Assembly: GCA_001897435.1 (NCBI GenBank) | Contig: MKSV01000008.1 | Location: forward strand, 1-64,000 | Direction: 5' to 3' | DNA length: 64,000 nt | DNA from: Acidobacteriales bacterium 59-55 | Lineage (GTDB): Bacteria; Acidobacteriota; Terriglobia; Terriglobales; Acidobacteriaceae | Notes under the pieces: generated by a model | What the model was told of the DNA's origin: nothing | Database searches by the model: none | What the model saw: the letters and a program-made list of their open reading frames with translations, nothing else | Position numbers and translations under genes: made by a program | Shown here: piece after piece, positions 1 to 58,384 of the stretch | Layout: every line of letters begins with the position of its first letter | Position numbering within the stretch: the first letter of the stretch is position 1

Positions 1-66
1 GCCCCTGCACCCCCATCCCGGCTTCCAGAAACGGAATCAAACATATAGAGAAAATCGCTTAGATAA

Positions 67-459
67 TGGCTGGATCTCGGAAACAACGCGGCCAGCGGCC
101 AATATATCCTGGGCCAGCCCCTCAATGACCGCAATCGACGCAAACTATCTAGGCTCCGCACCGTGGTCGAGTTGTACCCGGAGATTGCATCACCCTGGGC
201 CGGAGAAGATCCTCTTCCAAGCTGTAGCGCTCTCGAGGCTCTCCAGCGGCAGGAACCCTACACCAATCAGGTCCTGGCGGCCAGCGCGTTGGCGATGCTG
301 GCGCGGCTCTTCCGATATGGGACGATCGGGCACCACGGGGCCTTTTACAATGCAGAGACCGGACGCATGCATGTCATGCCGGTCGATCCTGAATTGCGGA
401 GACGCACGCAGCGCCGTTCGCGTGGATTATTAAAGAAATTCCAACCCGAGGCAGCGTAA
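67..459 (+). pseudogene. PRTRC system ThiF family protein, C-terminal part (5' end not intact in this window)
   Basis: Frame from 67 reads WLDLGNNAASGQYILGQPLNDRNRRKLSRLRTVVELYPEIA...CSALEALQRQEPYTNQVLAASALAMLARLFRYGTIGHHGAFYNAETGRMHVMPVDP, which I recognise as the C-terminal half of PRTRC ThiF. In-frame stops TAG (46-48) and TAA (64-66) lie just upstream. Confidence 0.65.
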
Positions 460-818: not shown

Positions 819-1382
819 ATGTTCAAGGAACTGGCGCCGCTGCTCCGGCAGCGGCCTGTCGTTTTGCTGCTCAATCCTCTTGAAGGCGATAGCCTTCGTG
901 TTCTCGTCATGCCCAAGAAGTTGAACGACACGGAAGATGCTGCGCTCGCTACACCTGTCAGCGTGACCGGCACTCCCGAGGAACTCGACGAACAGCTACC
1001 GGCGACGCTCTCGCAGTTCGTCGGCGCGCATATCGAGTTAAAGAACACGCTTGAGATCGCGAAGGAAGAGATGGCTGCGGCGGCAAAGACGGCAAGGGCA
1101 AAGAACAACTCCAAGACCAGCAATACAGCCACGCCTACATCGAAGGCGGCTGACAAGGTGTCTGCGAATGCTGCCTCAAAGCCTGCCGAGGAAAAGAAGC
1201 CCGCTCCCGCAATGACGGCCAACCTCTTCAACTTCGATGAGAGTCCGGCACCTGCCGATGCTCCGAAACCGGCGGAAATTCAGGCTCCGCCAGATGGCAA
1301 AGCGACGGATGAAGAGAGTGAGATCCTCGCCGAGATTGACGAGAGCGACCAGCAAAGTACCGCTGTCGAGGATGCGGCGTAA
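819..1382 (+). CDS. PRTRC system protein E
   Basis: 187 aa; MFKELAPLLRQRPVVLLLNPLEGDSLRVLVMPKKLNDTEDAALATPVSVTGTPEELDEQLPATLSQFVGAH matches the PRTRC E N-terminal pattern; low-complexity acidic/Ala-Pro tail. Confidence 0.75.
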   Translation: MFKELAPLLRQRPVVLLLNPLEGDSLRVLVMPKKLNDTEDAALATPVSVTGTPEELDEQLPATLSQFVGAHIELKNTLEIAKEEMAAAAKTARAKNNSKTSNTATPTSKAADKVSANAASKPAEEKKPAPAMTANLFNFDESPAPADAPKPAEIQAPPDGKATDEESEILAEIDESDQQSTAVEDAA

Positions 1383-3489: not shown

Positions 3490-4644
3490 ATGGCTTCTTC
3501 CAAGACAATTACCGATGCACCAGCAATGGAGTTCAGCGCGGACCGCGATACGATGCTTGCAGAGGTCACGGCTGCCGCGCGCGTGAGCGAAAGTAAGAGC
3601 ACGCAACCCATTCTCACCCACCTTCTTCTCGATGCGAGCGGAACCGGAGCCGTTACGATTACCGGCACCGATCTCAACCGGACGATCCGGACAGAGTGCC
3701 CCGCGCAGGTCACCACCGCCGGGACCGTGGCTGTGCCGTCACAGAAGTTTCTGAGCTATCTGAAACTTCTTCCATCGGGTCCAGTTCATCTCAAAGGGCT
3801 TGCGAACGACCATGTTCAAGTTCATGCCGGCAAATCCAAGACCCGCATGGCGAGCCGCGCAGCCTCCGGATTTCCAACCATCTCCACACCGCCTGCCAAT
3901 TCTGTACAGCTAAGCAGCCGAGTTCTGAGGACGCTGATCCGCCAGAGCATCTTTGCCGTGGCGACCGCGGACGACCGTCACCTTCTCAAGGCCGCCTTAT
4001 TGCTACTGCGCCCTGACCGGGCAGGCATGGTTGCGACGGACGGACATCGCCTGTCCTTCGTCGTTGTCCCCGATGATGGCATAGCGGTTCAGGGCGTGCA
4101 GAAGTCGCTTCTTCCTCGAGAGTGCCTCACCGATCTGCTCTCCTTGCTGTCCTCAACCAAGGAGGAAGCGGTGTACTTCAGCGAAGACGATGCAACCCTC
4201 TACTTCCAGATTGGGCCAAGGCTGTTGAGCGTACGCAAGCTTGTTGGACGTTTTCCGGACTATGAAGCCATCTTGCCGAAGGGTATGCCTAACTCGATGG
4301 TGCTCCGTTCCGCCGAACTGATGAGCTCGATTCAACGTGTGCTGGAATTTTCGGACGAGCGTTCTAATGGAGTGAAGTTCCATCTGGCTGACAACACGCT
4401 CAAGATCAGCTCTTCCGCTCCAGATCGCGGCGAATCAGAGGAGACGCTGGCCGTCAGTTATAGTGCCGAGCCCATCACTATCGGATTCAACGGCAACTAT
4501 CTGGTCGAGTTTCTGCGCACCATTGGGGACAAAGGGTCTATGCGATTGTCCCTCAAAGACTCGATCTCGGCAGGCTTGCTTGTGCCCGAGAATTTGAGTG
4601 GAGAGTTCCAGCAACAGTATGTCGTCATGCCGATGCGCATCTGA
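3490..4644 (+). CDS. dnaN: DNA polymerase III beta subunit (sliding clamp), accessory copy
   Basis: 384 aa with three-domain clamp pattern; PILTHLLLDASGTGAVTITGTDLNRTIRT, ATDGHRLSFVVVP, and C-terminal QQQYVVMPMRI. Confidence 0.9.
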   Translation: MASSKTITDAPAMEFSADRDTMLAEVTAAARVSESKSTQPILTHLLLDASGTGAVTITGTDLNRTIRTECPAQVTTAGTVAVPSQKFLSYLKLLPSGPVHLKGLANDHVQVHAGKSKTRMASRAASGFPTISTPPANSVQLSSRVLRTLIRQSIFAVATADDRHLLKAALLLLRPDRAGMVATDGHRLSFVVVPDDGIAVQGVQKSLLPRECLTDLLSLLSSTKEEAVYFSEDDATLYFQIGPRLLSVRKLVGRFPDYEAILPKGMPNSMVLRSAELMSSIQRVLEFSDERSNGVKFHLADNTLKISSSAPDRGESEETLAVSYSAEPITIGFNGNYLVEFLRTIGDKGSMRLSLKDSISAGLLVPENLSGEFQQQYVVMPMRI

Positions 4645-40871: not shown

Positions 40872-41390
40872 CTACGAGTCTTGAACTCGGCTGCACCAAG
40901 CAAGGTTCATCATCGTCTGCACGACTTGGCCGATGATCTGAACTTCTTCGGTGTTAAACATCTCCGGAGGCCTACTCTCGCCATATTCGTAGGGAATGAT
41001 GGTCCATCTACCTCCATTCCCGTCGGTGCTGCACCAACAGCATCGCCTTCCGAGTAGGGTGTTCAGCACAAAAATTGGCCGGTCAGTCTCCTCCATATCC
41101 TCACTATTAGTCGGGACCACTTTCCTTTCGCTGTCCACGATGAGGATTGTGCCAGGCAGAACAAATGGGTAGAGAGTTCGGTCTGACACATCGACCTCTA
41201 TACGTTGATAGCGAACAGAATTCATGAGCGGATCTCCTAGCAATACGGATGGACCGGCTTGCCAGGATTGTAGTCCGGATCCAACATTCTTCCACTCTGA
41301 AAGCTCCCCGCGGTTCGCCAAGCATACGCTCAGGAACGACTCACCCGCATCACGGTATTGCCGGAATGCTTCTCCCTCCGTCTCTTCCAT
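40872..41390 (-). CDS. S24/LexA-like C-terminal domain protein lacking a recognisable HTH
   Basis: VDVSDRTLYPFVLPGTILIVDSERKVVPTNSEDMEETDRPIFVLNTLLGRRCCWCSTDGNGGRWTIIPY...EEVQIIGQVV; pattern seen in acidobacterial XRE-S24-like regulators. Confidence 0.5.
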   Translation of the reverse strand: MEETEGEAFRQYRDAGESFLSVCLANRGELSEWKNVGSGLQSWQAGPSVLLGDPLMNSVRYQRIEVDVSDRTLYPFVLPGTILIVDSERKVVPTNSEDMEETDRPIFVLNTLLGRRCCWCSTDGNGGRWTIIPYEYGESRPPEMFNTEEVQIIGQVVQTMMNLAWCSRVQDS

Positions 41391-41414: not shown

Positions 41415-42410
41415 ATGAAGCCATCCGTGCTTGTAGAAGCACTTCTCCTGCTCATCGAACAGCGTGTACCTGTCCACATCTGGGGCGCATGTGGAATCGG
41501 CAAGTCCCAGATCGTTGCCCAGGTCGCGAAACGTCTCAGTTGGGACTTCCGCGACATCCGCGCGGTCCAGCTTGATCCAGTCGACCTGCGAGGTCTACCC
41601 CGAATTACGGCGAATTGGACCGAGTGGGTGCCCCCCAAATTTCTGCCGACAGAAGGTAAGGGCATCTTGCTCCTCGATGAACTTACGTCTGCACCTCAAT
41701 TGACTCAGTCGGGCTGCTATCAGCTTGTCCTGGACGGAAAACTTGGAGAGTACGTCCTGCCAGAGGGTTGGATTGTCGTCGCAGCAGGAAATCCGGCCTC
41801 CGAACGGGGAGTGCACTTTTCCATGCCGCGGCCGCTGCGCAACCGCTTCGAACACCTTGTGCTTGAACCGGAACCGACGGAGTGGTGCCAATGGGCGATC
41901 CAGGGAAACATTCGGAACGAGATCATCGCGCTTCTGCGTTTCAAACCGGACCTATTACACGATTCCGATACAACCACCGATCAGAACGCCTGGCCCACTC
42001 CCCGTACCTGGGAGATGGCCTCGAAGATCTTGGATGGTCTCAGCAAGAGATCAATTGCTTTGGATTCCGCCCTGGCATTTGGGATGTTCGAGGGCGCCAT
42101 CGGACCTGGGGCTGCCGCGGAGCTTGTCGGCTTCCTGCAACTCTTCCGCCAACTTCCATCTATCGACGAGGTTCTCCTCAATCCAGATTCCGCACCCCTG
42201 CCGAGCGATCCCTCGTCGCAGATCGCAATTGCGACTGCTCTCGGGCGAGTCCTCAACGATCAGTCCATCACAAAGGGAATGAAGTATCTCAAGCGAATGG
42301 CAACAGAGATGAGAGTTCTTGCCATGCGTGACGCAGCTGTTCGGGACCGATCTATCACCCACACCGCTGAATTCATCGAGTTCGGGCTACAACACGCGGA
42401 GGTCATTTGA
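41415..42410 (+). CDS. MoxR-type AAA+ ATPase
   Basis: VHIWGACGIGKSQIVAQVAKRL (Walker A), KGILLLDELTSAPQ (Walker B), IVVAAGNPASERGVHFSMPRPLRNRFEHLVLE. Confidence 0.88.
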   Translation: MKPSVLVEALLLLIEQRVPVHIWGACGIGKSQIVAQVAKRLSWDFRDIRAVQLDPVDLRGLPRITANWTEWVPPKFLPTEGKGILLLDELTSAPQLTQSGCYQLVLDGKLGEYVLPEGWIVVAAGNPASERGVHFSMPRPLRNRFEHLVLEPEPTEWCQWAIQGNIRNEIIALLRFKPDLLHDSDTTTDQNAWPTPRTWEMASKILDGLSKRSIALDSALAFGMFEGAIGPGAAAELVGFLQLFRQLPSIDEVLLNPDSAPLPSDPSSQIAIATALGRVLNDQSITKGMKYLKRMATEMRVLAMRDAAVRDRSITHTAEFIEFGLQHAEVI

Positions 42411-43351
42411 TGATTACTCACAAAGCAATGCTGGCGGCTGTTCACATTAGCGTGTGGACGGCCACGAAACATGACCGCAAGGTCAGCCGCGAGGTCGCCG
42501 ACCAGAATGGCGCCCGCGAGCGCGCTGGCCGTTACAACAAACAGCTCCTGATGGGCGCGAGCAAGCTGGAGGAATTACGTTCGCTTGCCGGCCAGATCCG
42601 GCAACACTTCTATAAGGTCACATTGCCATGGTCGGACGAAGGGCTCCGGCTTTTGCCAAGCCACTTCCTCTTTGAGCTTAAAGCGAAGATGCGCAAGTTC
42701 GAGCGCGAGTTCAACGAGGGGGTGGAATCGTTCCTTGCTGTATATCCGGCCTACATCCAGGAGGCGCGATCGGAGTTGGGAGGTCTCTTTTGCGAAGAAG
42801 ACTATCCGTCCGCGGAGAAGCTTCGCGACAAGTTCAATGTAAAACTCGACGTTCTGCCATTTCCGGCGGGCGAGGATTTTCGTGTCGAGATGTCTGCCGA
42901 AGAGCAGTCTCGTATGGCCCGCGAGATCGACGCCAATGCGAAAGAGAAGCTCGCCAAGGGAACCGAAGAACTCTGGAAGCGCTTGCGGCAGGTGGTCTCG
43001 AACATGGTCGAGCGACTCAACGAGCCAGAATCTCGTTTTCACAAGACGCTCGTTACCAACATCGACGAGCTCGTCTCGGTCCTCCCGCAGCTGAACGTCA
43101 ACCAGGACCCCGACCTGGAGCGCTTCGCATCTGCGATCCGAGAGCGCCTCTGCGCATATTCCGCGAAGGAGTTAAAGCAAGACAACCTGTTGAGGGCGGT
43201 AACAGCGATAGAGGCCGCGGGTATCGTGCGCGAGATCGACGACGTGCTGCAGAGCCGCAGTGCGGAGACTGCCGCGTTTTCCAGGGATCAGGCACAAACC
43301 GGGGACATCTTTGCTCACATGTCGGTGTACATGGAGGCACCAGCGGCATGA
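42410..43351 (+). CDS. DUF3150-like protein
   Basis: 314 aa coiled-coil/charged protein between MoxR and VWA genes; KVSREVADQNGARERAGRYNKQLLMGASKLEELRSLAGQIRQHFYKVTLPWSDEGLRLLPSHFLFEL. Confidence 0.7.
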   Translation: MITHKAMLAAVHISVWTATKHDRKVSREVADQNGARERAGRYNKQLLMGASKLEELRSLAGQIRQHFYKVTLPWSDEGLRLLPSHFLFELKAKMRKFEREFNEGVESFLAVYPAYIQEARSELGGLFCEEDYPSAEKLRDKFNVKLDVLPFPAGEDFRVEMSAEEQSRMAREIDANAKEKLAKGTEELWKRLRQVVSNMVERLNEPESRFHKTLVTNIDELVSVLPQLNVNQDPDLERFASAIRERLCAYSAKELKQDNLLRAVTAIEAAGIVREIDDVLQSRSAETAAFSRDQAQTGDIFAHMSVYMEAPAA

Positions 43352-44529
43352 ACGCCAGAACTTCTATCGAGGTCTGCCTCCAAAGAGCGCGGACCTCGCT
43401 CCTCCTCGATCATCCATTCTTTGGATGTCTGCTCTTTCGACTGAAGGGCTGTGAGGCTTCGTCGATCGAAACCATGGCTACGGACGGAGTATCTCTCTTC
43501 TATAACCCGCAGTTTGTAATGGAACTGACGGCAGCTGAACTGGTTGGCGTGCTGGCCCATGAAGTTCTTCATCCCGCACTCCAGCATCATCTTCGAAGGC
43601 GAACACGCTGTCCGAACCGTTGGAACCGCGCCTGCGACTACGCAATCAATCTACTCGTTCTGGACGCTGGCCTGTCTTTGCCGAAGGGAGGCTTGGTAGA
43701 TGAGCAGTACCGCGGCATGAGCGCGGAGGAGATCTACAACCTGCTCGAAGGCAGCGAGAGTGAGGGTCCGAATGGATCACCTTTGCCCATGAACAATAGC
43801 ACGGAGAAGGATGGAGAACTTCAAGCTCCGCGCACTCCCGGTGGATTCGGCCAAGTCCTCGATGCTCCCACTCCGGAAGAGAACGAGGGCAAGGGCGCTG
43901 AAGAACAGTCAGCGGAATGGAATGTTGCTGTTAGCCGGGCACAAACGATCTCGAAGTTGGCTGGAAAGCTCCCGGCTGGTGTTGCACGGAGCCTCGAGAG
44001 TGCGGCGGAAGCCTGCGTTGACTGGCGTGCGCTGTTGCGCCGCGCATGGTCGGATAGCACTCCTTCCGATTACTCGTGGATGCGCCCGAATCGAAGACAC
44101 ATCTGGCAAGGCCTGTACCTGCCAGGTATCCACCGAGAAGGTGTCGGTGAAGTGGTCATCTTCGTCGATTGTTCGGGATCAATCAACGGCCGGCAACTCT
44201 CCCTGTTCGAAGCGGAGATCCGTTCCATTCTAGATGGCGAAAGACCGGAAAGGGTCTACGTCGTCTACTTCGACGCGCACGTACACAAGGTTGATTGCTT
44301 TGTGCCGGGACAGCCTCTTCGCCTCTTACCACTTGGAGGTGGGGGCACGGACTTCTGCCCTTGCTTCTTATGGGTCGAACAGCAAGGAATACACCCACAA
44401 CTCCTCGTCTTTCTCACGGACCTATACGGCACGCTTCCAGACGTAGAGCCAAAATTCCCTGTGATCTGGGCCTCCACTGGAGCCAGGTCTGCGCCGTTCG
44501 GGCAGATCGTTCCGATGCAAGCTGCTTAA
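43348..44529 (+). CDS. DUF2201-type putative metallopeptidase plus VWA-like domain protein
   Basis: AHEVLHPALQHH (HExxH); VVIFVDCSGSINGRQLSLFEAEI (MIDAS DxSxS), GGGGTDF, LTDLYG. Confidence 0.85.
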   Translation: MNARTSIEVCLQRARTSLLLDHPFFGCLLFRLKGCEASSIETMATDGVSLFYNPQFVMELTAAELVGVLAHEVLHPALQHHLRRRTRCPNRWNRACDYAINLLVLDAGLSLPKGGLVDEQYRGMSAEEIYNLLEGSESEGPNGSPLPMNNSTEKDGELQAPRTPGGFGQVLDAPTPEENEGKGAEEQSAEWNVAVSRAQTISKLAGKLPAGVARSLESAAEACVDWRALLRRAWSDSTPSDYSWMRPNRRHIWQGLYLPGIHREGVGEVVIFVDCSGSINGRQLSLFEAEIRSILDGERPERVYVVYFDAHVHKVDCFVPGQPLRLLPLGGGGTDFCPCFLWVEQQGIHPQLLVFLTDLYGTLPDVEPKFPVIWASTGARSAPFGQIVPMQAA

Positions 44530-44545
44530 GTCATTTTTCTTCCCA

Positions 44546-44577
44546 GGCGGCCGACGTCTCGGCCGCCATCCTTTTTT
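44546..44577 (+). terminator. Intrinsic terminator abutting the SD of the next gene
   Basis: GGCGGCCGA-CGTC-TCGGCCGCC, ATCC, TTTTTT, then CAAGGAGATACCTATG. Confidence 0.85.
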
Positions 44578-44590
44578 CAAGGAGATACCT

Positions 44591-45202
44591 ATGTCCACTT
44601 CTGGATCGAATCCTTCGCTCTTTGAGCTGGATCGTGAGCTGGATCTGCTTCTTGATCAGATTCAGGAGCAGTCCGAAACAAACGCAGAGGGTTGTGTGCC
44701 TCCCATGCTCATTGAGCAGTTCCAGTATTTCTGTCACGCATACAACCAGAAGGTCGATCGGATCGGTCACTTCCTCTTGGCTCTGGATGCTCGCGCTGCA
44801 CATTGCCGGGGCGAAGCCGCCCGGCTCACTGACCGTGCTCGAGTCGCCGAAAACAAAGCGGCAAGAACGAAGAACATGGTCCTGTACTATCTTGAGAGTC
44901 GCGGACTCAAGAAGGTGGAGGGGTTGGAAGTCACGCTTAGGAAGCACGCAAATAGTCAGCCCACCTTAGTAATCCACGATGAGACTCAATTACCGCTCAC
45001 GTATCAACAGGTGGAAGCCAAGGTTCCCGGTTCCTTTTGGCAGAGCCTTCAGGCATATCTACCTGATACGGAGAAGCAGAAACTGAATTCATATGTACAG
45101 CATTCTGAACCCAGTGCTTCTTCGATCAAGGCAGCGATTTCAGCGAATGAGTCGGTGCCAGGGGTCGAACTCAAGCGAAACAATCATTTGCGTGTGGAAT
45201 AA
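44591..45202 (+). CDS. Siphovirus Gp157-like protein
   Basis: FELDRELDLLLDQIQEQSETN...FCHAYNQKVDRIGHFLLALDARAAHCRGEAARLTDRARVAENKAARTKNMVLYYLESRGLKKVEG. Confidence 0.78.
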   Translation: MSTSGSNPSLFELDRELDLLLDQIQEQSETNAEGCVPPMLIEQFQYFCHAYNQKVDRIGHFLLALDARAAHCRGEAARLTDRARVAENKAARTKNMVLYYLESRGLKKVEGLEVTLRKHANSQPTLVIHDETQLPLTYQQVEAKVPGSFWQSLQAYLPDTEKQKLNSYVQHSEPSASSIKAAISANESVPGVELKRNNHLRVE

Positions 45203-45293
45203 GTTGCTGAGTGGTTGCACTAGCTTAAGAAATAGGTGCCTCGTCCAATGCGAATCGTGGCATGCTTCTAAATGCGGGTGTTCATCAGTGACC

Positions 45294-45797
45294 ATGGATA
45301 TGCACTCTGTCCATTCTCTTGAGCAACTCATTGCCAGAGCTAAACTATGTCCAAAGGGTCCTTCTCGAGAGCGTCAGTGGAACATGCTGATCGCGAAGCT
45401 TCAGCCGATCGCCGCGATCAATTTTGAGCGAGTCGTCAGAGACATGCTGGATTCCAGCGGAGAACGAAGACGAGATGAAGAATCATTCCAGCTATCGAAA
45501 AAGGAACTAATTGAGCTTTTGGGAGGATTCGAAGGCATCAAGCGCCTGGAAAGGAATGCTCTGATCTTGACTCATTTGGCTTATCTGCTTCAGCAGGAGT
45601 TCCACTTGACGGAGAACATCTCTGAGCAGCAGTTCCTCGATTTTCGCAGTCTGTGGTGGCACGTCGATCGGCTCCGTACATCGACCACAGATCGTCTTGA
45701 GGATTCCTTCGACATGTACGGGCGGAATATAGTGATTGAGTATTGTCGAATGGTGCGCCAGCCTTCTCTAGCTCCGTTTGCTGTCAGCCAACAGTAA
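45294..45797 (+). CDS. Hypothetical protein downstream of Gp157-like gene
   Basis: 167 aa, start uncertain (ATG 45294 or GTG just upstream). Confidence 0.5.
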   Translation: MDMHSVHSLEQLIARAKLCPKGPSRERQWNMLIAKLQPIAAINFERVVRDMLDSSGERRRDEESFQLSKKELIELLGGFEGIKRLERNALILTHLAYLLQQEFHLTENISEQQFLDFRSLWWHVDRLRTSTTDRLEDSFDMYGRNIVIEYCRMVRQPSLAPFAVSQQ

Positions 45798-46567: not shown

Positions 46568-48637
46568 TTAAGCGAGCTTCAGGCGGCGAAGAGTTTGCGC
46601 ATTGAGGGCAACGACAATGGTCGAAATACTCATGGCCATCGCGCCCACACTCATTGGGAGATCGATATTCCAGCGGATAAAGAGTCCGGCTGCCACGGGG
46701 ATGGCGATGAGGTTATATATAGTTGCCCAAAATAGGTTCTGCACCATCTTTCGGTATGTCGCCCGCGATAACTCAATCGCACGAACGACGTCTCGGGGAT
46801 CACTGCGGACGAGAACAATTCCCGCCGATTCCACGGCAACATCCGTTCCAGCACCTATGGCAATTCCGACGTCTGCTGTCGCGAGCGCTGGTGCATCATT
46901 CACACCGTCGCCAACCATTGCCACTTTCTTGCCCCCAGCCTGGAAGCGTTTTACCGCCGACGCCTTATCGGCGGGCAGAACCTGTGCAGCGACCTCATCA
47001 ATACCGAGTCTGCTCGCAACCGAATCTGCCACTGCTTGTGAATCGCCGGTGATCATTGCTACGCGCACACCGAGCTTGTGCAATGCCTGTATCGCTTTGG
47101 CTGACTCTGCTCGAATCTCATCTTCTACCGCAAGGATACCTATCACGCTGTTTTGCTGCATAACGTAAAGCACAGTCTTTCCTTGGGAGGACCACATATT
47201 CGCAGTCTTCTCCAACTCTGAAGGAACGGCAGCCTTTGCATCATCAATCAAGTGCGGCCCTCCAATTGCGACAGTTTGTCCGTCGACAGTTGCGCGCGCA
47301 CCACGCCCCGGCAGCGCCTCGAAATCCGTAGATCGGCTAGAGGTAACACCGCGGTCATGCGCGCCGGAAACAACAGCTTTGGCGATTGGATGTTCCGAGT
47401 CCGCTTCTACTCCCGAGGCAAGCGCTAGCACTTGTTGTTCGCTCATGCCAGCATTCACTGCTATTGCTGAAAGAACAGGCGAACCCTTGGTGAGTGTTCC
47501 TGTCTTATCAAAGATCACAACATTTAGTTCTCGTGCCCGCTCGAGTGCAAGACGGTCTTTGATGAGCAAGCCGTTCTTCGCGCCAAGAGACGTGGAAATC
47601 GCAATGACGAGCGGGATTGCTAGGCCAAGCGCATGCGGACATGCAATCACCAGTACAGTGGCGGTACGGATGAAAGCATGTTCTTTGTCGCCCGTGAACC
47701 ACCAATAGACCCACGTCAGGATGCCGGATATAAGTGCAACATAGAACAGCAAAGCCGCAGCGCGGTCAGCCAAAGCTTGAGCTCTGGAGCCGGAAGCCTG
47801 CGCTGAAGCGACCATCCGCATGATGCCAGAGAGTGCGGTCTGCTCTCCGACCTCCTTAACCTGGACCCGCAGACTTCCGCCGGCAATAACCGTTCCAGCC
47901 ACCACTGCTGATCTCTCTCCCTTCGAGACCGCCCGAGACTCGCCAGTAATCATGGATTCGTCAACGTCGGCCGTACCTTCGATAATGATTCCGTCGGCAG
48001 GCACGCGCGATCCGGGGCGCACTAGTACTACATCACCAGAGCGTAATTCTGAGAGTGGGATTTTCTCAGTGCCTGACTCTGTCACACGCTCGGCACTGTC
48101 TGGCAACAGCGCGGCAAGAGCACTGATGGCGCCTTGAGCCTGGGTAATTGCTTTCATCTCCAGCCAATGGCCGAGAATCATGATGGTAATCAGGGTTGCA
48201 AGCTCCCACCAGACATCAACCTTGAAGAAGCCAAGCGTCGCCGCGAATGATGCTGTGAAAGCAACGATGATAGCCAGACTGATTAGAGTCATCATGCCGG
48301 GACGGCGATCGGAAAGTTCTCTCCATGCGCCCCGAATGAACACACTTCCGCCATAGACAAAGATAATGGTGCCAAGAATTGCGGGAATAAATCGTGATCC
48401 TGGAAATGTCGGAGCGTTGTAGCCAAGCCAATGTTCCACCTCAGCCGACCAGAAGACCACTGGAAGGGTGAGAGCCAAACTCAACCAGAATTTCTCTCGG
48501 AACGTAGCGACAGAGTGACCAGCGTGCTGGTCATGACCCGTATGAGGACCCGTGTTTCCTACCTGTGAGGCGTGCCCCTCATGCATATCGTGCACGCCCC
48601 CATGTTGTCTGTGATCGCCTGTAGCAAGTTTCATCAT
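46568..48637 (-). CDS. Copper-translocating P1B-type ATPase with His-rich N-terminus
   Basis: MMKLATGDHRQHGGVHDMHEGHASQVGNTGPHTGHDQHAGHS; CPHALGLAIPLV, DKTGTLTKG, GDGVNDAPALATADVGIAIG. Confidence 0.95.
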   Translation of the reverse strand: MMKLATGDHRQHGGVHDMHEGHASQVGNTGPHTGHDQHAGHSVATFREKFWLSLALTLPVVFWSAEVEHWLGYNAPTFPGSRFIPAILGTIIFVYGGSVFIRGAWRELSDRRPGMMTLISLAIIVAFTASFAATLGFFKVDVWWELATLITIMILGHWLEMKAITQAQGAISALAALLPDSAERVTESGTEKIPLSELRSGDVVLVRPGSRVPADGIIIEGTADVDESMITGESRAVSKGERSAVVAGTVIAGGSLRVQVKEVGEQTALSGIMRMVASAQASGSRAQALADRAAALLFYVALISGILTWVYWWFTGDKEHAFIRTATVLVIACPHALGLAIPLVIAISTSLGAKNGLLIKDRLALERARELNVVIFDKTGTLTKGSPVLSAIAVNAGMSEQQVLALASGVEADSEHPIAKAVVSGAHDRGVTSSRSTDFEALPGRGARATVDGQTVAIGGPHLIDDAKAAVPSELEKTANMWSSQGKTVLYVMQQNSVIGILAVEDEIRAESAKAIQALHKLGVRVAMITGDSQAVADSVASRLGIDEVAAQVLPADKASAVKRFQAGGKKVAMVGDGVNDAPALATADVGIAIGAGTDVAVESAGIVLVRSDPRDVVRAIELSRATYRKMVQNLFWATIYNLIAIPVAAGLFIRWNIDLPMSVGAMAMSISTIVVALNAQTLRRLKLA

Positions 48638-48658
48638 TCGTCTCCATGAGCCATATCT

Positions 48659-48802
48659 TCAGAGTCTTAGAGCCAGGGGCGAATTCCATTCGATGACCTC
48701 TTCCGCAATCTGCGCGCCGCGTTGCGGAGGCATGAAGTGCGGAATTCCGAAAAAAACTCCATGATTCAACGCGGCGGCAGCCATCGAAGCATAAAAAGCC
48801 AT
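48659..48802 (-). CDS. Small ORF of unknown function
   Basis: MAFYASMAAAALNHGVFFGIPHFMPPQRGAQIAEEVIEWNSPLALRL*, in the gap between the ATPase and DUF5666-like genes. Confidence 0.25.
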   Translation of the reverse strand: MAFYASMAAAALNHGVFFGIPHFMPPQRGAQIAEEVIEWNSPLALRL

Positions 48803-48857
48803 GAGAAGGATGTGTGAGGATCAAATGTCGTGCTAGACCGCCCAATACTCCGCACAC

Positions 48858-49166
48858 CTAATGAGTTGTCACCTCACTGAATTGCACGGTGTGTGCCTGA
48901 AGAACGCCCTTCATCTTCATGGCATGGATGACGACACGATCACCGATCTTGAGGTCTGCGCGAGTCGCGGCTTTCTTGGCTTTCTCGTAGGTCGTTGTGT
49001 CGGCCAATACGACTTCGACGCTTTTCTTGTCTGTGGTCTCGACCGTTACCGATTTATGGCTCAATGCAGTCACGACTCCCATGACGTGGATCATGCCCTC
49101 ATGGGCGCGCGCTATCAGTGTGATGCAGGAGAGAAGCAAAACTGTAACCAGGATGCGACGTTTCAT
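48858..49166 (-). CDS. Secreted DUF5666-like small protein
   Basis: Signal peptide then HVMGVVTALSHKSVTVETTDKKSVEVVLADTTTYEKAKKAATRADLKIGDRVVIHAMKM. Confidence 0.7.
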   Translation of the reverse strand: MKRRILVTVLLLSCITLIARAHEGMIHVMGVVTALSHKSVTVETTDKKSVEVVLADTTTYEKAKKAATRADLKIGDRVVIHAMKMKGVLQAHTVQFSEVTTH

Positions 49167-49182
49167 GACTCATAATTCCTTT

Positions 49183-49797
49183 CTAGTGGTGAGGTTGTTG
49201 TGGTGCAGAAGAGCCGCCGCGCAGGAAATCCTCTTCCTGCTGCTCTTCCTGCCGTTCATCAGGTGATTTAGGATTGAGCTTTTCCATCTCCAGTTCCTCG
49301 TCTTGGGTAAGAGAAGGGAGATGACGGATAAACGCGACGAGCTTCCAACTATCAAGATCGCCATCGCCAGGGCCTCCGAATGCGGGCATGCCGCTAAGCC
49401 TGACGCCATTCTTGATGGTGTAGTAGAGTTCGCCATCTGACATCTCCTGTGTGTCCTTCTGGCGCATATCCGGCGGCTTCGGATACATGGTCCTTCCGTA
49501 CATCGTGTCCCCGCTGCCATTGTTGGCATGGCAAGTGGCACAGTGGTCGGCCCAATGCGCCATGCCTTCATGGATCGCCTTGGGAGTGACCGCAACAGGG
49601 TTCTTCATCGCCTTGTAGCGCTCTGGGATCGCCACGTCGCGCATAGACATGGCAAGCGATGCTTCTACCCCGCTTGGCTTGTCTCGCGTGCTGAAGCCGC
49701 GATGGATAAGGCGGTCAGCCACAAGGATGCAAGCGAAGATGACGAGAAGGATGATGGCCGAAAATGAGATGATGAACTTGCGTCTCATCCTGTTCAC
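49183..49797 (-). CDS. Cytochrome c family protein
   Basis: Single N-terminal TM; HWADHCATCHANNGSGDTMYGRTMYPKPPDMRQ (CxxCH) and distal Met. Confidence 0.88.
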   Translation of the reverse strand: MNRMRRKFIISFSAIILLVIFACILVADRLIHRGFSTRDKPSGVEASLAMSMRDVAIPERYKAMKNPVAVTPKAIHEGMAHWADHCATCHANNGSGDTMYGRTMYPKPPDMRQKDTQEMSDGELYYTIKNGVRLSGMPAFGGPGDGDLDSWKLVAFIRHLPSLTQDEELEMEKLNPKSPDERQEEQQEEDFLRGGSSAPQQPHH

Positions 49798-51389
49798 TCC
49801 TGTGCTCCACCGGCATTCGGCAAGTTAATCGTTGTAGTTGGTGTATCGGTTGACACGGGAGCATGGAGTCCACCGCTCAGCGTATAGTTCTGGAGCGCAA
49901 TTGCATTCCGCCACACTTCACGGAGAGCCATGACGTAGCCAACCCGCAACTGGAAGAGCGTGCGCTGTGAAACCAGCACCTGGGGATAGGCTTGCGCCAT
50001 GCTCTGGTACTTCTTCAGATAGAGTTCATAGGCTCGCGTCGAACGGGGGATGAGCTGGGTTTTATAGCGGTCCGCCTCGAATTTCGCAGATTCATACGAT
50101 TGCGCCAGTGGAGCTGCTGCCTGACGAAGCGACAACTGCTCGCGGAGAAGATCCTGATTTGCACGTTCGATTTCGACCTTTGCAGCCTGAACATTCCCTT
50201 GGTTTCGGTTCCAGAGAGGAATGTTGATGCCGGCGCTGGCAAAGCTTTGCGGACCTGTTGCTTTGACAGGTCTCTCGCTGACTTGTTCAAAGTTATATTG
50301 CTCGCCAGCACGCAACGTGAGATCGGGAATCGGCTCGCGCTTCGCGTCTTTCAGGCGCGCCTGAGCAACCACAATCTCCTGGTGCGCCCGCTTTACCGTA
50401 GGACTGTCAGAGACGACTGACTCAACCATCTGCTCAGCATTCAGGTCGGGTGTCTTCTCTAAATCGCCCTGCAACGGGCTCGCAGGCAAATCGCCTTTGC
50501 CCGCAAGCGAAGCAAGGACGCGGAAAGTTTCAAGATAGTGGCGCTGGGCGGTTACGTAGTCCACCTTTGCCTGTTCCGCTTCCACTTCTGTCTGCAGGAT
50601 GTCTGGCGCGTCCGCCTGTCCCACGTTGGCAAGCTGATGCACCGTTTCGACCGCGTCCAGCGCTATGCCGAGCAATTGCTGCCGGAGATGGACAGTCACC
50701 TGAGCAGCCAACGCATCATAAAATGCCTGCTGCACATCAGCGTGAACCCGGTAAGTCTGTTCTTCTACCCCGATCTGCTCAGAGCGGCTTTCCTGTTCAT
50801 GAATGTTGCGCCGGAGTCCCAGTTTTCCGCCCAGCACGATGGTTTGCTGCACAAAACCGCCGTGTTCTCCGCCACCATAAGAACCGCCGCGAATCTGCTC
50901 TCCCTGATAGCCAACAGAAGGATTTGGATATAAACCTGCTTGTCGGGCCTTGGCCTGTGAACGACGTACAAAGGCGCCGGCTTCTTTAAGGGTGGGATTG
51001 TTCGCATCGGCCAACTGCGTGAAGTCGTTGAGACTCATAGTCGGCCGCGTGACGACCTCTTTCAGAAGTTCGGGGGCAGGCAGATTGGCCCCCGTCTTGT
51101 TTGCAGGGCTTTCTGGTTCCTGCAAAGTCATCGTCGCATGGGTATCCGGACTTTGCGGATTCTGCTGCTGCCCCATCTGCATTCCCGGCATGTTGTTCAT
51201 GTCCTGGGGCTGATCGTGCTGCATCCCAGGCTTGTTCTGTTTTTGTAGTGGCTGCTGCTTCTTTGCTGGTGTGCAGCCGGGCATGACCATGCCTTCCATG
51301 CACGGCATGGATTTCTGTTGGGCGTCTTGTGCAAACACTGCGGCACCGAAAAGGCCCATCATCGCGAATGTAAGAAGTCTCAATTTCAT
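49794..51389 (-). CDS. TolC-family outer membrane efflux protein with Met-rich N-terminal extension
   Basis: NNPTLKEAGAFVRRSQAKARQAGLYPNPSVGYQGEQ; GMQHDQPQDMNNMPGMQMGQQQ extension. Confidence 0.88.
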   Translation of the reverse strand: MKLRLLTFAMMGLFGAAVFAQDAQQKSMPCMEGMVMPGCTPAKKQQPLQKQNKPGMQHDQPQDMNNMPGMQMGQQQNPQSPDTHATMTLQEPESPANKTGANLPAPELLKEVVTRPTMSLNDFTQLADANNPTLKEAGAFVRRSQAKARQAGLYPNPSVGYQGEQIRGGSYGGGEHGGFVQQTIVLGGKLGLRRNIHEQESRSEQIGVEEQTYRVHADVQQAFYDALAAQVTVHLRQQLLGIALDAVETVHQLANVGQADAPDILQTEVEAEQAKVDYVTAQRHYLETFRVLASLAGKGDLPASPLQGDLEKTPDLNAEQMVESVVSDSPTVKRAHQEIVVAQARLKDAKREPIPDLTLRAGEQYNFEQVSERPVKATGPQSFASAGINIPLWNRNQGNVQAAKVEIERANQDLLREQLSLRQAAAPLAQSYESAKFEADRYKTQLIPRSTRAYELYLKKYQSMAQAYPQVLVSQRTLFQLRVGYVMALREVWRNAIALQNYTLSGGLHAPVSTDTPTTTINLPNAGGAQE

Positions 51390-51405
51390 GGCTTTGTTCC
51401 TCATC

Positions 51406-52884
51406 TCAGGCGCGCTCCAGAATGGCGGCATAGGGGTCTTTGGGACGGTTGGCCTTCTTCATGCGAGAAATGACCTCGTCGTATTTCTCGGGCGGCAGCA
51501 CGCGGACAAATGTCATCATGCCCTGCATGAATCCGCTCCAGCCCGGCTTCAGGCCGTAATTCTCAGGCCGTTCGACAGCCTTATCCATCGCCATCATTGG
51601 TCCTTCCATGTAGGCGTCTTGCGGGAAGTTCGGAACATCGTTCGCACTCTTCGCAATGTCTCCTTCCATACCGCCCATTTGCATGTTTCCCATCTCATGC
51701 TGCATTCCTGGCATTGCAGCCATGGCTTTCTCTTGAGAAAGGGGGCCGTTGGTTGTCGAAGTGTCGGTCGCGTTGCCAACGCCGCCGAGACCGCGGCCTA
51801 GAGTCGGACCGTAATCTTCACCCAGGGGAGCACCGGGTTCCCCTTGAAGCATCCCCATGCCGGTATTCATGTCACCTCCGGCTGGCATTCCTGCCATGCG
51901 CGTCATCTTTCCGGTGACAGACGACATCTGGTTCATCATGTGATGGGGCAAGTGGCAGTGAATCATCCAATCTCCGGGATTGTTGGCAACGAATTCCACA
52001 TTTCGCGCCTGTGCCACACCAACGAGAACCGTGTTCCCAGGCCACCAGGCCGATTCAGGAATGCGGCCTCCTTCTGTGCCTGTGGTGTAAAAGGTGTGGC
52101 CGTGCAAATGCATCGGATGGTGGTCCATGCCGAGGTTTACAAAGCGAATTCGCACGCGGTCTCCGAGCCGGACGACGAGAGGAGTGGTTGCCGGACCGGC
52201 CTTACCGTTGAAGACGAGCCAGTTGAATTCCATATTCATGGTGTTGGGAACGGTGTTGTTAGGAAGTACTGCATACTCTTGCAAATGAATCAGAAAGTCT
52301 TTGTCGCAATGGGGACGATATGGTTCTTTAGGGTGCATGATGAAAGCGCCCAGCATTCCCGCCATCTCCTGCATCGCCATGTGCGAGTGATAGAAGTACG
52401 TGCCTTCCTGATGGATGTCGAATTCATAGCTGAACTGCCCTCCAGGTTTTACCGGAGGCTGACTAATTACGGGTTGGCCATCGTTTTGAATCGTGTCTTC
52501 GAACCCGTGCCAGTGGATCGAAGTCGATTCAGGCAGATGGTTGTCGAAGACCACCCGCACATGATCGCCTTGATTGACCTGGATCGTGGGCCCTGGTGCG
52601 CTTCCGTTGAAACCCCACAGGTCAATGGTTTTCATCGGATGGATCTGCTGCTTTACGACCTCGGCAACAAGATGGAAAACTTTGGTGTTGCCGTCCATTG
52701 TGTACGGGAGGTCCCCGACGTCAGTCGTGACGACCGGCATGTTGAAGGCCGGACCGGGATGGGTTTGACGAACCCGCTTGTAGATTTTGGTGTTCTGCTC
52801 TGTCTGAGCGAAGGCTTTTGTGGAAGCCAGCCAGGCAGCACCTAATCCCAGTGTGTTCTGGAGAAAGGAACGACGATTACTCAT
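51406..52884 (-). CDS. Multicopper oxidase (CopA/CueO-like)
   Basis: Tat-like MSNRRSFLQNTLG; IHWHGFEDTIQND, TYFYHSHMAMQEM, HHPMHLHGHTFY, MIHCHLPHHMMNQM. Confidence 0.95.
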   Translation of the reverse strand: MSNRRSFLQNTLGLGAAWLASTKAFAQTEQNTKIYKRVRQTHPGPAFNMPVVTTDVGDLPYTMDGNTKVFHLVAEVVKQQIHPMKTIDLWGFNGSAPGPTIQVNQGDHVRVVFDNHLPESTSIHWHGFEDTIQNDGQPVISQPPVKPGGQFSYEFDIHQEGTYFYHSHMAMQEMAGMLGAFIMHPKEPYRPHCDKDFLIHLQEYAVLPNNTVPNTMNMEFNWLVFNGKAGPATTPLVVRLGDRVRIRFVNLGMDHHPMHLHGHTFYTTGTEGGRIPESAWWPGNTVLVGVAQARNVEFVANNPGDWMIHCHLPHHMMNQMSSVTGKMTRMAGMPAGGDMNTGMGMLQGEPGAPLGEDYGPTLGRGLGGVGNATDTSTTNGPLSQEKAMAAMPGMQHEMGNMQMGGMEGDIAKSANDVPNFPQDAYMEGPMMAMDKAVERPENYGLKPGWSGFMQGMMTFVRVLPPEKYDEVISRMKKANRPKDPYAAILERA

Positions 52885-53022
52885 GATGTCCTCAGTTAGA
52901 TAGGCATTCCGGCATAGGGGAATGCAGCCACAAATGTGAGCCACTGGCGCGAACTGAAGACTGAGTACAGAACAGCACAATCCGGCCCATGACAGAACGC
53001 ATTGGCGACAGTTGCGCCGGAG

Positions 53023-53460
53023 CTAGATTCTGAGGGCTACCGTGAGAGGAGGATGAGAATCGACAATGTCCGGAGGAGGAGCCTCGCTGACATAACGAAG
53101 AGGAACGATGCCCCCTTCCAAATTCGGAACCGGATGAATCACGGTCCATTTCAGTTGATCGGACTGGAACGCCTTTACAGGAAGGTTCACGCTCGCCACT
53201 TGTCTGCAGAGCAGATGGGTGCAATCAGGCGTAGCAGCTAGCTCGACGGCTGATACTCCCGATTCGTCGCGCTTGTTCATGTGCGCGCAATGCATATCGT
53301 GGGTATGCATTGCCGTCGCCGCATGATAGGAAGCAGGCTTCATATGACATTCCGACTGGGAAGCTAACGCGGCACAATTCGCATCGCAGACCGCCGCCCA
53401 CGAGGACGCAGTCAGGAGAATGACTGCCAGCAGCGCCGCGAATGTACTTCTCCACGTCAT
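53023..53460 (-). CDS. Small secreted Cys/His/Met-rich protein ending LRI
   Basis: Signal peptide; CDANCAALASQSECHMKPASYHAATAMHTHDMHCAHM; tail PPPDIVDSHPPLTVALRI. Confidence 0.6.
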   Translation of the reverse strand: MTWRSTFAALLAVILLTASSWAAVCDANCAALASQSECHMKPASYHAATAMHTHDMHCAHMNKRDESGVSAVELAATPDCTHLLCRQVASVNLPVKAFQSDQLKWTVIHPVPNLEGGIVPLRYVSEAPPPDIVDSHPPLTVALRI

Positions 53461-53516
53461 GGCCACATCATACTCTGTCGCAGGCATTCCCATGAAGGCC
53501 GGGACCGCAATGCTCC

Positions 53517-54209
53517 TCAATGACCGTGATGAAAACCGTGGCCCATAAGATGCATGGAGATAAGTGCGGCCAGTGCGAGGAATCCTATAACAAGCGCAGT
53601 GACGATTTGGAGTTTCCGGGGCCTTTCCTGGTTTGGGATCTGGTCATCAAAGCCGGGCAGACTGCCAGCGATGCCCGCCGCCGCGACCTTGTAGCGCAAC
53701 TCGCGCCGTTTGTCCTCTCCGTATGGGGTGAGCCCCCAGGGCTTGTAGACCGACAGTATGGTAATCACCGACAACACCAGAATGCCAATTCCGGAAGCAC
53801 GTGCCAGCACAAAACCGACGCTGCCAAGTTCGGCAGTGGGCATCGCTCCCGCCGTGGCCGTCGATACAAGCCTCACGGCCCTTGCCATCGCCGAGAACTG
53901 ATGCATCAGCAAGACAGCAACAGCAAGTACGGTCAAAATAAATTTGACCAACACCCAGTAGTGCCGGAATAGGCCCCATTGGGTGCAGAGGGACTGGATC
54001 AATCCGGTTCCAAGCGCCGCCAGGCTCAGAGGAATGATGCAATAGAGGCAGATCAAGTTCATCGAGAGATAGGCGCCGCGCATCATGGTCGCGTCTCGGC
54101 TGACGAGCCCGGCAATACTGAGTATGAAGAATGCGAACGCTGCGCCAATCCAACTCACAGAGAACGTGACGTGTGCGGTGAGGTTCAATTTGCGGAGGCT
54201 GGGTGTCAT
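53517..54209 (-). CDS. DUF2269-like integral membrane protein
   Basis: 230 aa, about five TM segments, C-terminal HLMGHGFHHGH; 4-bp overlap with marR. Confidence 0.6.
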   Translation of the reverse strand: MTPSLRKLNLTAHVTFSVSWIGAAFAFFILSIAGLVSRDATMMRGAYLSMNLICLYCIIPLSLAALGTGLIQSLCTQWGLFRHYWVLVKFILTVLAVAVLLMHQFSAMARAVRLVSTATAGAMPTAELGSVGFVLARASGIGILVLSVITILSVYKPWGLTPYGEDKRRELRYKVAAAGIAGSLPGFDDQIPNQERPRKLQIVTALVIGFLALAALISMHLMGHGFHHGH

Positions 54210-54718
54210 ATTTGGACACTTTCTTCATTGGTGGTTTGTCTGCCGCTGAGTGTTTGTGCCCGCAACAGCGCAATGTGGCGGTAGATGAGGTCGGTGCTCC
54301 GATTCATGAACTGAGTGATGCCGATGAGTTGTTGCGCGTCGAAATCCTTCAACATGACTGCAACGTCTTTTCGCAAGGGACCGATTACTTCATGGATCGG
54401 CGACTGTTTGAGCGCCAGATGGAGTATCTGTCTTCGGCCATCATGCGGGTCAGGTTCGCGGCGCAGATATCCTGCTCGTTCGAGTCTTGCGACGACACCC
54501 GTGATTGCACCGGTTGTCAGGCCAGTAACCGCAGCGAGCTCACTGCCTGTCATGTGACCGCGCTCGCGCAACAAATCGAGGCATTTGTAGTCAGTTGGCC
54601 CCACTCCCATGCGTTCGGCAATTGCATGATGAAACAACACGACTGCCGTGCTGTGACGACGGGCTAACTTTTCGACGATCTCTTTGGCAAGCTCCCTCTT
54701 TTTGAGGATCGATGGCAT
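54206..54718 (-). CDS. MarR family transcriptional regulator
   Basis: LDLLRERGHMTGSELAAVTGLTTGAITGVVARLERAGYLRREPDPHDGRRQILHL. Confidence 0.93.
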   Translation of the reverse strand: MPSILKKRELAKEIVEKLARRHSTAVVLFHHAIAERMGVGPTDYKCLDLLRERGHMTGSELAAVTGLTTGAITGVVARLERAGYLRREPDPHDGRRQILHLALKQSPIHEVIGPLRKDVAVMLKDFDAQQLIGITQFMNRSTDLIYRHIALLRAQTLSGRQTTNEESVQI

Positions 54719-54863
54719 CCCAAGATTATACTCATAAAATCGCTTAGATGCTAAGCTACTTTTATGTATCACATGAAATCAGCCCGTCTCGATCATTGGG
54801 GTAGAAAGAAACTATGCCTGGGCAACGATGGTCAACGTAGTTTATGGCAGGCGAAAGCAAGTC

Positions 54864-55190
54864 TCATTTCGCCCGGCTGATGGAATCTACAGAAATCGCA
54901 TCACCAGACACCTTGCCCTTTACTGTGGCATTCTGTCCTGCGAATCTGTCAAACTGCGCTTTGTCGCTTTTCAACGTATAGACCTTATCCCCGCTCGCAA
55001 GCGCGAACTCGGCTCCCTGCTTGACGCAGGCGCGCGTGCATTCGGCAGGAGTGGCGTTTTTCATCATGGTGTGGTGTGCGCCACACATCGCATCGGTCAC
55101 GGTTCCGCTTATGGTTTGTGTTTCCTGCGCGAGTAAGGTCACTGCACTCAGCGCCAGTGCCGCAGTCAGTATGAAATATTTGGTTCGCAT
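54864..55190 (-). CDS. Secreted small protein, OB-like/DUF
   Basis: Signal peptide; QTISGTVTDAMCGAHHTMMKNATPAECTRACVKQGAEFALASGDKVYTL. Confidence 0.65.
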   Translation of the reverse strand: MRTKYFILTAALALSAVTLLAQETQTISGTVTDAMCGAHHTMMKNATPAECTRACVKQGAEFALASGDKVYTLKSDKAQFDRFAGQNATVKGKVSGDAISVDSISRAK

Positions 55191-55204
55191 TGTTGTATCT
55201 CCAA

Positions 55205-58200: not shown

Positions 58201-58384
58201 CGATCACATCGGGAGGTCGCCCCATCCAGTTGGTGTGAACGACGACCTGAACATCGGAAATATCCGGCAGCGCGTCAAGAGGCATGTGCTGCAACGACCA
58301 GATGCCTGCCAGTGTCAGCATCAGAACTGCTGCAAAAACGAGAAAACGGTTGCGTGCGCAGACTTCGATAATTTTGGAAAGCAT
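55205..58384 (-). CDS. cusA: CusA/CzcA-type heavy-metal efflux RND permease
   Basis: MLSKIIEVCARNRFLVFAAVLMLTLAGIWSLQHMPLDALPDISDVQVVV; Met/Glu-rich RND core. Confidence 0.95.
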   Translation of the reverse strand: MLSKIIEVCARNRFLVFAAVLMLTLAGIWSLQHMPLDALPDISDVQVVVHTNWMGRPPDVIEDQVTYPIVTSLLAAPHVKAVRAQTMFGDSYVYVVFQDGTDLYWARSRVVEYLQQISGRLPENVHPSIGPDATGAGWVYEYAIVDKSGKHSLADLRSLQDWRLRYALETVPGVAEVASIGGYVRQYQVQLDPNKLLAYGIPLSTVIDRVKASTNEVGGRVLDLSGAEYMIRGLGYLRSLDDLASVAVGSKNGTPVLLRDLGTVSFGPDIREGVAEWNGEGETVGGIIVMRQGMNALDVINGVKQKLREIAPSLPAGVVIMPGYDRSGLIDASIKTLQRDLLEEAIIVSVVIIVFLFHFRSALIAILALPIAVLVAFIPMYWLGVTSNIMSLGGIALAIGVLVDASIVMVENGYRHLSDRQENSSVPVSESERRTILINAAKQVGPALFFSLLIIVVSFLPVFLLEAQEGRMFRPLAWTKTLAVGSSSILAITLVPVLMVMLIRGKLRPERTNPISRVTQAVYLPILRWCLRHRWLTIAVNLIFLIATLPLATKLGSQFMPPLFEGSTLYMPTALPGISIEQAKVLLHEQDRILRGFPEVASVFGTVGRSDSATDNAPLNMYDTTVMLKPREQWPTGMTYEKLIQDMDEKLQFPGLSNTWTMPVENRLDMELTGIKTPLGLKVQGPDVNGIQQLASQIQNVLSSLPETRSVFAEKVAQGFYVNVEVNRPEAARYGLTVTDIQTAVASGIGGENIAENIEGRERYPVNVRYQRDFRDNIDKMRGVLIGTPSGAQIPLGQVARISFSHGPAMIRDEDGALTGYIYIDLKSADYGGFVAKADKLLHDKLTLPPNYSYQWSGEYQLELRAKQRLQLILPVVFFLIFLLLYLVFKSVAEALVLIFPTVYAMSGGLLLQWLLKYNFSVAVAVGYIALFGIAVETGVVMVVYLHESLERRLQAGKPLTNVDIEEAAIEGAVHRLRPKLMTVCAVLASLVPILWESGIGSDVMKPIAAPIVGGMITSTIHVLILVPVFFVMMKERALKRGTLVPRFSNNGSAVQPSA

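What the first reader, a model, noticed from the sequence alone, without database searches (positions are those of the whole stretch)
41415..45797. MoxR AAA+ / DUF3150 / HExxH-VWA / Gp157-like operon as a candidate uncharacterised system
Seen: four tightly packed genes on one strand with overlapping starts and stops (42410, 43348-43351), then a terminator-SD junction, then a Gp157-like gene and a hypothetical. The VWA protein keeps the MIDAS motif (DCSGS...GGGGTDF) plus an HEVLH metallopeptidase-like motif; the ATPase keeps both Walker motifs. Known: MoxR-VWA pairs act as chaperone/maturation or conflict systems, and Gp157 is a phage protein family linked to resistance phenotypes. Inference: the cassette could be a phage- or plasmid-derived conflict or DNA-protection module. 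Function cannot be assigned from sequence.
Basis: partly seen in the sequence, partly recalled or inferred. Interest (0 to 1): 0.8.

Follow-up and report, generated by a model that had tools for sequence, protein, structure and literature searches.

The report
Mobile-element AAA+, DUF3150, VWA-peptidase cassette
Three overlapping genes encode a predicted ATP-driven protein-remodelling machine that plasmids and integrated elements carry beside a bacterial ubiquitin-like tagging system and that hundreds of phages carry in part, so it is probably a housekeeping machine of mobile DNA rather than a dedicated defence system.

Summary
The operon is real. A MoxR/Midasin-type AAA+ ATPase, a DUF3150-family protein and a DUF2201 zincin-VWA protein overlap by 1 and 4 nt; a terminator follows, then Gp157 and a small protein. 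Selection is strongly purifying and the genome has a second copy (65% identity). The three genes stay together in Acidobacteria and on betaproteobacterial plasmids (39 listed plasmids carry all three; 38 have ATPase within 3 kb of DUF3150). The VWA protein is in 686 phage records; with the ATPase it is N4 gp24/gp25, core genes of unknown function. In Acidobacteriales and on Burkholderiales plasmids the trio is linked to PRTRC, a mobile ubiquitin-like conjugation cassette (UBL, E1, E2, JAB); the window keeps PRTRC remnants at 58-1382. In several phages it lies beside polymerase, helicase or RNase H genes. PADLOC finds no defence match, although the adjacent slot carries defence genes in four related loci. 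Best reading: an ATP-powered remodeller, possibly proteolytic, serving replication or maintenance of mobile elements; the substrate is unknown. 'Mobile-derived and uncharacterised' holds; 'conflict module' is unproven. The most novel open reading is that the machine processes PRTRC-tagged proteins.

The parts
41415..42410 (+). MoxR/Midasin-type AAA+ ATPase, 331 aa
   Evidence: phrog_1297 1.8e-86; Pfam AAA_3 23.4 bits, below the 27-bit cut-off; Walker A/B, sensor 1 and arginines conserved in 47 homologues; best PDB profile match Midasin 1e-32
42410..43351 (+). DUF3150-family protein, 313 aa, long helices with an N-terminal strand region
   Evidence: PF11348 in 14 of 33 homologues, best 3.5e-8; model pLDDT 84.3; no solved fold match at E <= 0.001
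43348..44529 (+). DUF2201 protein: zincin-like N-terminal domain (HEVLH, D97) and VWA domain (MIDAS), 393 aa
   Evidence: PF13203 1.9e-53, PF09967 9.2e-26; MIDAS DxSxS in 53/53 and HExxH in 48/53 homologues; model matches VWA folds
44546..44577 (+). Predicted intrinsic terminator between VWA and Gp157 (hairpin 44546-44567, then T run)
   Evidence: RNA fold MFE -23.7, z -3.8; sequence
44591..45202 (+). Gp157-family protein, 203 aa
   Evidence: PF05565 3.9e-24; phrog_253 5.4e-23; homologue near the trio in 12 clusters of Acidobacteria loci
45294..45797 (+). Small protein of unknown family, probable start 45294
   Evidence: No Pfam match; homologues downstream of the trio in L004, L005, L006 and elsewhere on contig C8 (L071)
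40872..41390 (-). Partial homologue of a backbone gene that sits after the small protein in L004-L006; accessory to the cassette
   Evidence: blastp 34-39% to L004/L005; tblastn covers residues 189-297 of the L004 protein; the L004 protein has a weak N-terminal HTH_31 match
58..390 (+). C-terminal part of PRTRC ThiF (E1-like), at the contig end, with one TAA in the stretch
   Evidence: TIGR03736 positions 134-245, 7.7e-27; tblastn
819..1382 (+). PRTRC system protein E
   Evidence: TIGR03741 6.7e-20, above cut-off
3490..4644 (+). DNA polymerase III beta-clamp (DnaN) homologue, 384 aa, next to PRTRC and, in L005, next to the trio
   Evidence: TIGR00663 1.2e-56; Pfam domains; neighbour in L005 and contig C12

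Best explanation
The cassette encodes an ATP-driven protein-remodelling machine of mobile elements. The AAA+ protein forms a MoxR/Midasin-type ring. The DUF2201 protein couples to it through its VWA (MIDAS) domain and carries a zincin-like domain. DUF3150 is an adaptor or scaffold, present in most plasmid and Acidobacteria versions and a minority of phage versions. The machine dismantles, matures or cleaves a protein complex on or around the element's DNA during its replication or maintenance. Shown: gene content, conserved active-site motifs, co-conservation, mobile-element location, PRTRC linkage, and replication-gene neighbours in several phages. Inferred: ring assembly, docking, the adaptor role, peptidase activity and the substrate.
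For: Trio kept together in Acidobacteria loci and on plasmids. Walker, sensor and MIDAS residues near invariant over phages and bacteria. MoxR-VWA pairs are chaperone/cochaperone systems elsewhere (PMC7159879), and the ATPase profile is nearest Midasin. N4-like gp24/gp25 are core, middle-expressed genes (PMC4193335). Pair directly upstream of helicase and polymerase in LIT1 and SBP1; RNase H between ATPase and VWA in phiFa and next to VWA in many Acidobacteria loci; beta-clamp gene in the Acidobacteria backbone. Trio lies between PRTRC and conjugation genes on L063 and L102.
Against: No experiment. Neighbours are not replication genes in EdH4, PAC2 or CR8. Neighbourhood alone cannot name a substrate. 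The catalytic glutamate is replaced in L021, L024 and L025, so peptidase activity is not universal. DUF3150 was found in only 3 phage records.
Confidence: 0.45

Rival explanations
1. Ubiquitin-like-directed unfoldase/protease: PRTRC (UBL, E1, E2, JAB) tags proteins, the VWA MIDAS recognises the UBL as the Midasin MIDAS domain binds UBL domains, the AAA+ ring unfolds the target and the zincin cuts it.
For: Linkage of VWA and PRTRC ThiF in Acidobacteriales: 16 genomes with both against 26 and 33 singly, p 4.7e-10 uncorrected for relatedness; 15 of 34 VWA loci within 50 kb. Same linkage on Burkholderiales plasmids, whose clade is separate on the VWA tree. PRTRC C/B/A/ThiF are Prok_Ub, Prok-E2_D, Prok-JAB and ThiF. 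Midasin is the nearest solved ATPase relative; an MDN1 MIDAS-UBL complex is among the VWA fold matches (weak).
Against: The phage pair has no PRTRC linkage that I saw. PRTRC ThiF is on many plasmids (376 records) of which only some can carry the trio (72 with VWA). Linkage may reflect shared plasmid backbones. No interface was modelled.
Confidence: 0.15
2. Conflict or defence module carried by mobile elements.
For: Neighbouring slot carries Druantia-like, Avs3a, short Argonaute/SIR2 and Mokosh-like genes in L014, L012, L010 and L064. Other MoxR-vWA systems are predicted conflict systems (PMC7159879).
Against: No meaningful PADLOC match for the trio; no effector domain recognised; its pair is core in lytic phages (PMC4193335); the trio is constant while the cargo varies.
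Confidence: 0.15
3. Counter-defence or host-takeover machine that dismantles host complexes acting against incoming mobile DNA.
For: Shared by lytic phages and by plasmids with conjugation genes; middle-expressed in N4 (PMC4193335).
Against: It also persists in contigs that look chromosomal in Acidobacteria (contig sizes); no known anti-defence neighbour was identified.
Confidence: 0.13
4. Virion assembly chaperone, as proposed for the jumbo-phage pair.
For: Proposed by Iyer et al. 2021 by analogy with the Acidianus two-tailed virus system (PMC7824862); structural genes lie near gp24/25 homologues in some roseophages (PMC4193335).
Against: Present on plasmids without annotated virion genes nearby; lies beside replication genes in LIT1 and SBP1.
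Confidence: 0.12

Closest known systems
Phage N4 gp24/gp25 and the jumbo-phage MoxR-vWA(metallopeptidase) pair (PMC4193335, PMC7824862)
   Same: Homologous ATPase and zincin-VWA protein with the same Walker, MIDAS and HExxH motifs
   Different: Most phage versions seen lack a detectable DUF3150 gene and Gp157; proposed role there is virion assembly
PRTRC cassette, the row 6d ubiquitin-like operon of Iyer et al. 2006 (PMC1779556)
   Same: Genetically linked in Acidobacteriales and on Burkholderiales plasmids; the window keeps a ThiF part and protein E
   Different: A separate conjugation cassette; the trio is not part of its published gene list, and many PRTRC plasmids appear to lack the trio
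Midasin (Rea1/Mdn1)
   Same: Nearest solved relative of the ATPase profile; AAA+ plus MIDAS VWA logic
   Different: Single giant eukaryotic protein in ribosome assembly; no zincin domain known to me
RavA-ViaA
   Same: Bacterial MoxR ATPase with VWA partner (PMC7159879 and general knowledge)
   Different: No direct comparison made here; ViaA has no zincin domain (general knowledge)
MoxR-vWA ternary conflict systems (PMC7159879)
   Same: MoxR, vWA and a third conserved gene
   Different: Third gene here is DUF3150-like, not a recognised VMAP, iSTAND or FtsH component; no effector domain recognised

Membership tests
MoxR-type AAA+ ATPase | Walker A, Walker B, sensor 1 and arginine residues | tested here: met
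   Conserved in 47 homologues and in phage members
MoxR-type AAA+ ATPase | Pfam AAA_3 at gathering score | tested here: not met
   23.4 bits against 27; placed instead by phrog_1297 and the Midasin match
DUF2201 | PF13203 and PF09967 above cut-off | tested here: met
   182.3 and 90.8 bits against 23.2 and 26.4
Active zinc peptidase | Zn binding and proteolysis | not testable with these tools
   Motif only: HExxH in 48 of 53 and D97 in 51 of 53; activity needs an assay
DUF3150 | PF11348 match | tested here: inconclusive
   Window protein E 0.048, below cut-off; 14 of 33 homologues match, best 3.5e-8
Gp157 | PF05565 above cut-off | tested here: met
   85.9 bits against 28.6
PRTRC system | UBL, E2-like, JAB and E1-like genes together at this locus | tested here: not met
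   Window holds only a ThiF part and protein E; other PRTRC genes lie at ends of other contigs
MoxR-vWA ternary conflict system | VMAP, iSTAND or FtsH third component with effectors | tested here: not met
   Third gene belongs to the DUF3150 group and has no effector domain by Pfam, NCBIfam or PADLOC; VMAP models themselves were not run
Known anti-phage defence system | PADLOC match of the trio | tested here: not met
   None, apart from a marginal 0.0092 hit of the helical DUF3150 protein
RavA-ViaA | ViaA-type VWA protein and RavA C-terminal domains | not tested
   No direct comparison made

The most novel reading that the evidence does not exclude
The trio is the executive arm of a bacterial ubiquitin-like pathway on mobile elements: the VWA MIDAS domain reads the PRTRC ubiquitin-like protein or its conjugates, the AAA+ ring unfolds the tagged protein and the zincin cleaves it, a Cdc48/protease-like logic for clearing proteins from element DNA; phages use the machine without the tagging system.
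Probability: 0.12. Interest if true: 0.9.

Novelty: new variant of a known kind. Interest (0 to 1): 0.58.

Why it matters
PRTRC has been recognised as a mobile ubiquitin-like conjugation operon since 2006 without a known function, and N4 gp24/gp25 are core phage genes without one. Linking both to one AAA+/DUF3150/zincin-VWA machine gives each a testable partner, and N4 in laboratory E. coli makes the phage half directly testable. It also shows that many phage homologues are labelled 'HNH endonuclease' although Pfam and the motifs make them zincin-VWA proteins.

Tried and rejected
Chance ORFs: rejected by homology and dN/dS. Known defence system: no meaningful PADLOC match and no NCBIfam match. 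Solved structural relative of DUF3150: none convincing (the apolipoprotein hits look like coiled-coil similarity). Published function: no paper in the library names DUF3150; four name DUF2201, which I did not open and judged from titles and abstracts to be genome or omics papers. The CRISPRi-ART paper has transcriptome-wide screens for T4, T5, SUSP1 and PTXU04 only; the passages shown give no gp24/gp25 data. Gp157 or RNase H as universal partners: among fetched loci Gp157 was found only in Acidobacteria, RNase H in Acidobacteria and phiFa.

Full report
Observation. The ATPase (41415-42410) and DUF3150 gene (42410-43351) overlap by one base, and the DUF3150 and VWA genes (43348-44529) by four. 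A strong hairpin with a T run separates them from Gp157 (44591-45202), so the tight unit is three genes, not four. The last gene probably starts at 45294. Family scans give DUF2201_N 1.9e-53, DUF2201 9.2e-26 and Sipho_Gp157 3.9e-24. The ATPase is weak in Pfam but 1.8e-86 in PHROG 1297. DUF3150 is below cut-off for the window protein, but 14 of 33 aligned homologues match it, best 3.5e-8. Selection is strongly purifying: against L004, dN is 0.11-0.12 and dS 1.5-1.9 for ATPase and DUF3150.

Conserved sites. In 47 ATPase homologues the Walker A lysine, Walker B aspartate, sensor 1 asparagine and two arginines are invariant. In 53 VWA homologues the MIDAS DxSxS and threonine are always present, while HExxH is intact in 48; L021, L024 and L025 have A or T for the glutamate, and two others are unaligned or partial there. 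The N4-like, LIT1, EdH4, phiFa, PAC2, CR8, SBP1, phage G, MinM2 and pSYSA proteins carry the same HExxH and DxSxS motifs. In EdH4 the ATPase partner with Walker motifs is the MoxR gene about 3.6 kb upstream on the other strand, not the gene adjacent to VWA. The closest solved relative of the ATPase profile is Midasin (1e-32). The VWA model (pLDDT 83.5) matches VWA folds. The DUF3150 model (pLDDT 84.3) matches nothing solved at E <= 0.001, so its role as an adaptor is inference.

Where it occurs. The window's genome has a second, 65% identical copy on contig C11 with RNase H and Gp157. The trio is complete in most Acidobacteria loci long enough to show it. tblastn finds the VWA protein in 686 phage records and 72 plasmids, and DUF3150 in 42 plasmids but only 3 phages. 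Of 39 plasmids listed for all three proteins, 37 have VWA within 3 kb of DUF3150 and 38 have ATPase within 3 kb of it. The cassette is patchy: DUF3150 at E <= 1e-10 in 4 of 297 genomes of the phylum, VWA in 26 of 249 genomes of the order when weak hits are set aside by hand. That is the pattern of a mobile-element gene.

Neighbours. In six Acidobacteria loci (L009, L010, L012, L014, L015, L016) several PRTRC genes lie within about 6 kb upstream, and L008 has the end of that cassette. Burkholderiales plasmids L063 and L102 have PRTRC, then the trio, then a block of conjugation genes. By Pfam, PRTRC C is Prok_Ub, B is Prok-E2_D, A carries Prok-JAB and ThiF is E1-like; I equate this with the row 6d operon of Iyer et al. 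2006 by its gene content (PMC1779556). Co-occurrence of VWA and PRTRC ThiF in Acidobacteriales is 16 genomes against 26 and 33 singly (p 4.7e-10, relatedness not corrected), and 15 of 34 VWA loci have ThiF within 50 kb. On the VWA tree the Acidobacteria clade and the Burkholderiales plasmid clade are each well supported and separate, though the branches between them are weak. The window keeps the ThiF end and PRTRC E at 58-1382 and a beta-clamp homologue at 3490-4644, about 37 kb from the trio; in L005 the clamp gene ends under 5 kb from it. I infer insertion of cargo in the window copy.

Phage context. The pair is N4 gp24/gp25, both among 14 core genes of N4-like phages, without known function (PMC4193335). 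It lies directly before helicase and polymerase genes in LIT1 and SBP1, and around an RNase H gene in phiFa. RNase H near the trio in both Acidobacteria and phiFa is a recurring association. Iyer et al. 2021 noticed the pair in jumbo phages and proposed virion assembly (PMC7824862). Plasmid copies without annotated virion genes nearby speak against that as the general role. In EdH4, PAC2 and CR8 the neighbours are uninformative.

Defence. The trio has no meaningful PADLOC match. The stretch next to it does carry defence genes in four related loci: Druantia-like, Avs3a, short Argonaute with SIR2, and Mokosh-like. Two genes tested in a fifth locus, L009, had no match. These loci were picked for their large downstream genes, so four of five is not a rate. 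The cassette looks like the constant edge of a cargo slot, which may be why it resembles a conflict module.

Mechanism. The most likely reading is an AAA+ ring with a VWA/zincin cochaperone that remodels or cleaves a protein complex during replication or maintenance of the element (about 0.45). Rivals are a ubiquitin-like-directed unfoldase (0.15), a conflict module (0.15), counter-defence (0.13) and virion assembly (0.12). Shown: sequence, motifs, linkage and context. Inferred: assembly, activity and substrate. These probabilities are judgements, not computed values.

Noticed in passing
phage records; PHROG 1314: Many phage homologues of the VWA protein are annotated 'HNH endonuclease', the PHROG 1314 label, although Pfam makes the window protein DUF2201 (zincin-like plus VWA); the label looks like a propagated mis-annotation.
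   Followed up: partly
L014:10539-17226, L012:11228-17212, L010:11964-16002, L064:5757-10313: The stretch after the trio carries defence genes in related loci: Druantia-like, Avs3a, short Argonaute with SIR2, and Mokosh-like.
   Followed up: partly
window 58-390; G000 C3:22-417, C4:606177-606599, C12:19414-19740: PRTRC ThiF halves lie at four contig ends and split near the same residue (about 136), which suggests collapsed repeats or insertions inside ThiF.
   Followed up: partly
window 3490-4644: A beta-clamp (DnaN) homologue sits in the element backbone; relatives lie next to PRTRC or the trio on C12 and in L005.
   Followed up: partly
window 46568-62838: Genes that read like metal resistance (P-type ATPase, multicopper oxidase, outer-membrane and RND-type proteins) follow the cassette; identified by eye from translations, not by family search.
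   Followed up: no
L015:13188-16571: A DNA polymerase III alpha gene lies between the VWA and Gp157 genes, behind a 562-aa ORF that may be its mutasome partner.
   Followed up: no
L021, L024, L025: VWA homologues with the catalytic glutamate of HExxH replaced by A or T but both histidines kept.
   Followed up: no
L100:7001-9279: Synechocystis PCC 6803 plasmid pSYSA carries the ATPase-VWA pair with no annotated DUF3150 gene beside it, in a laboratory model organism.
   Followed up: no
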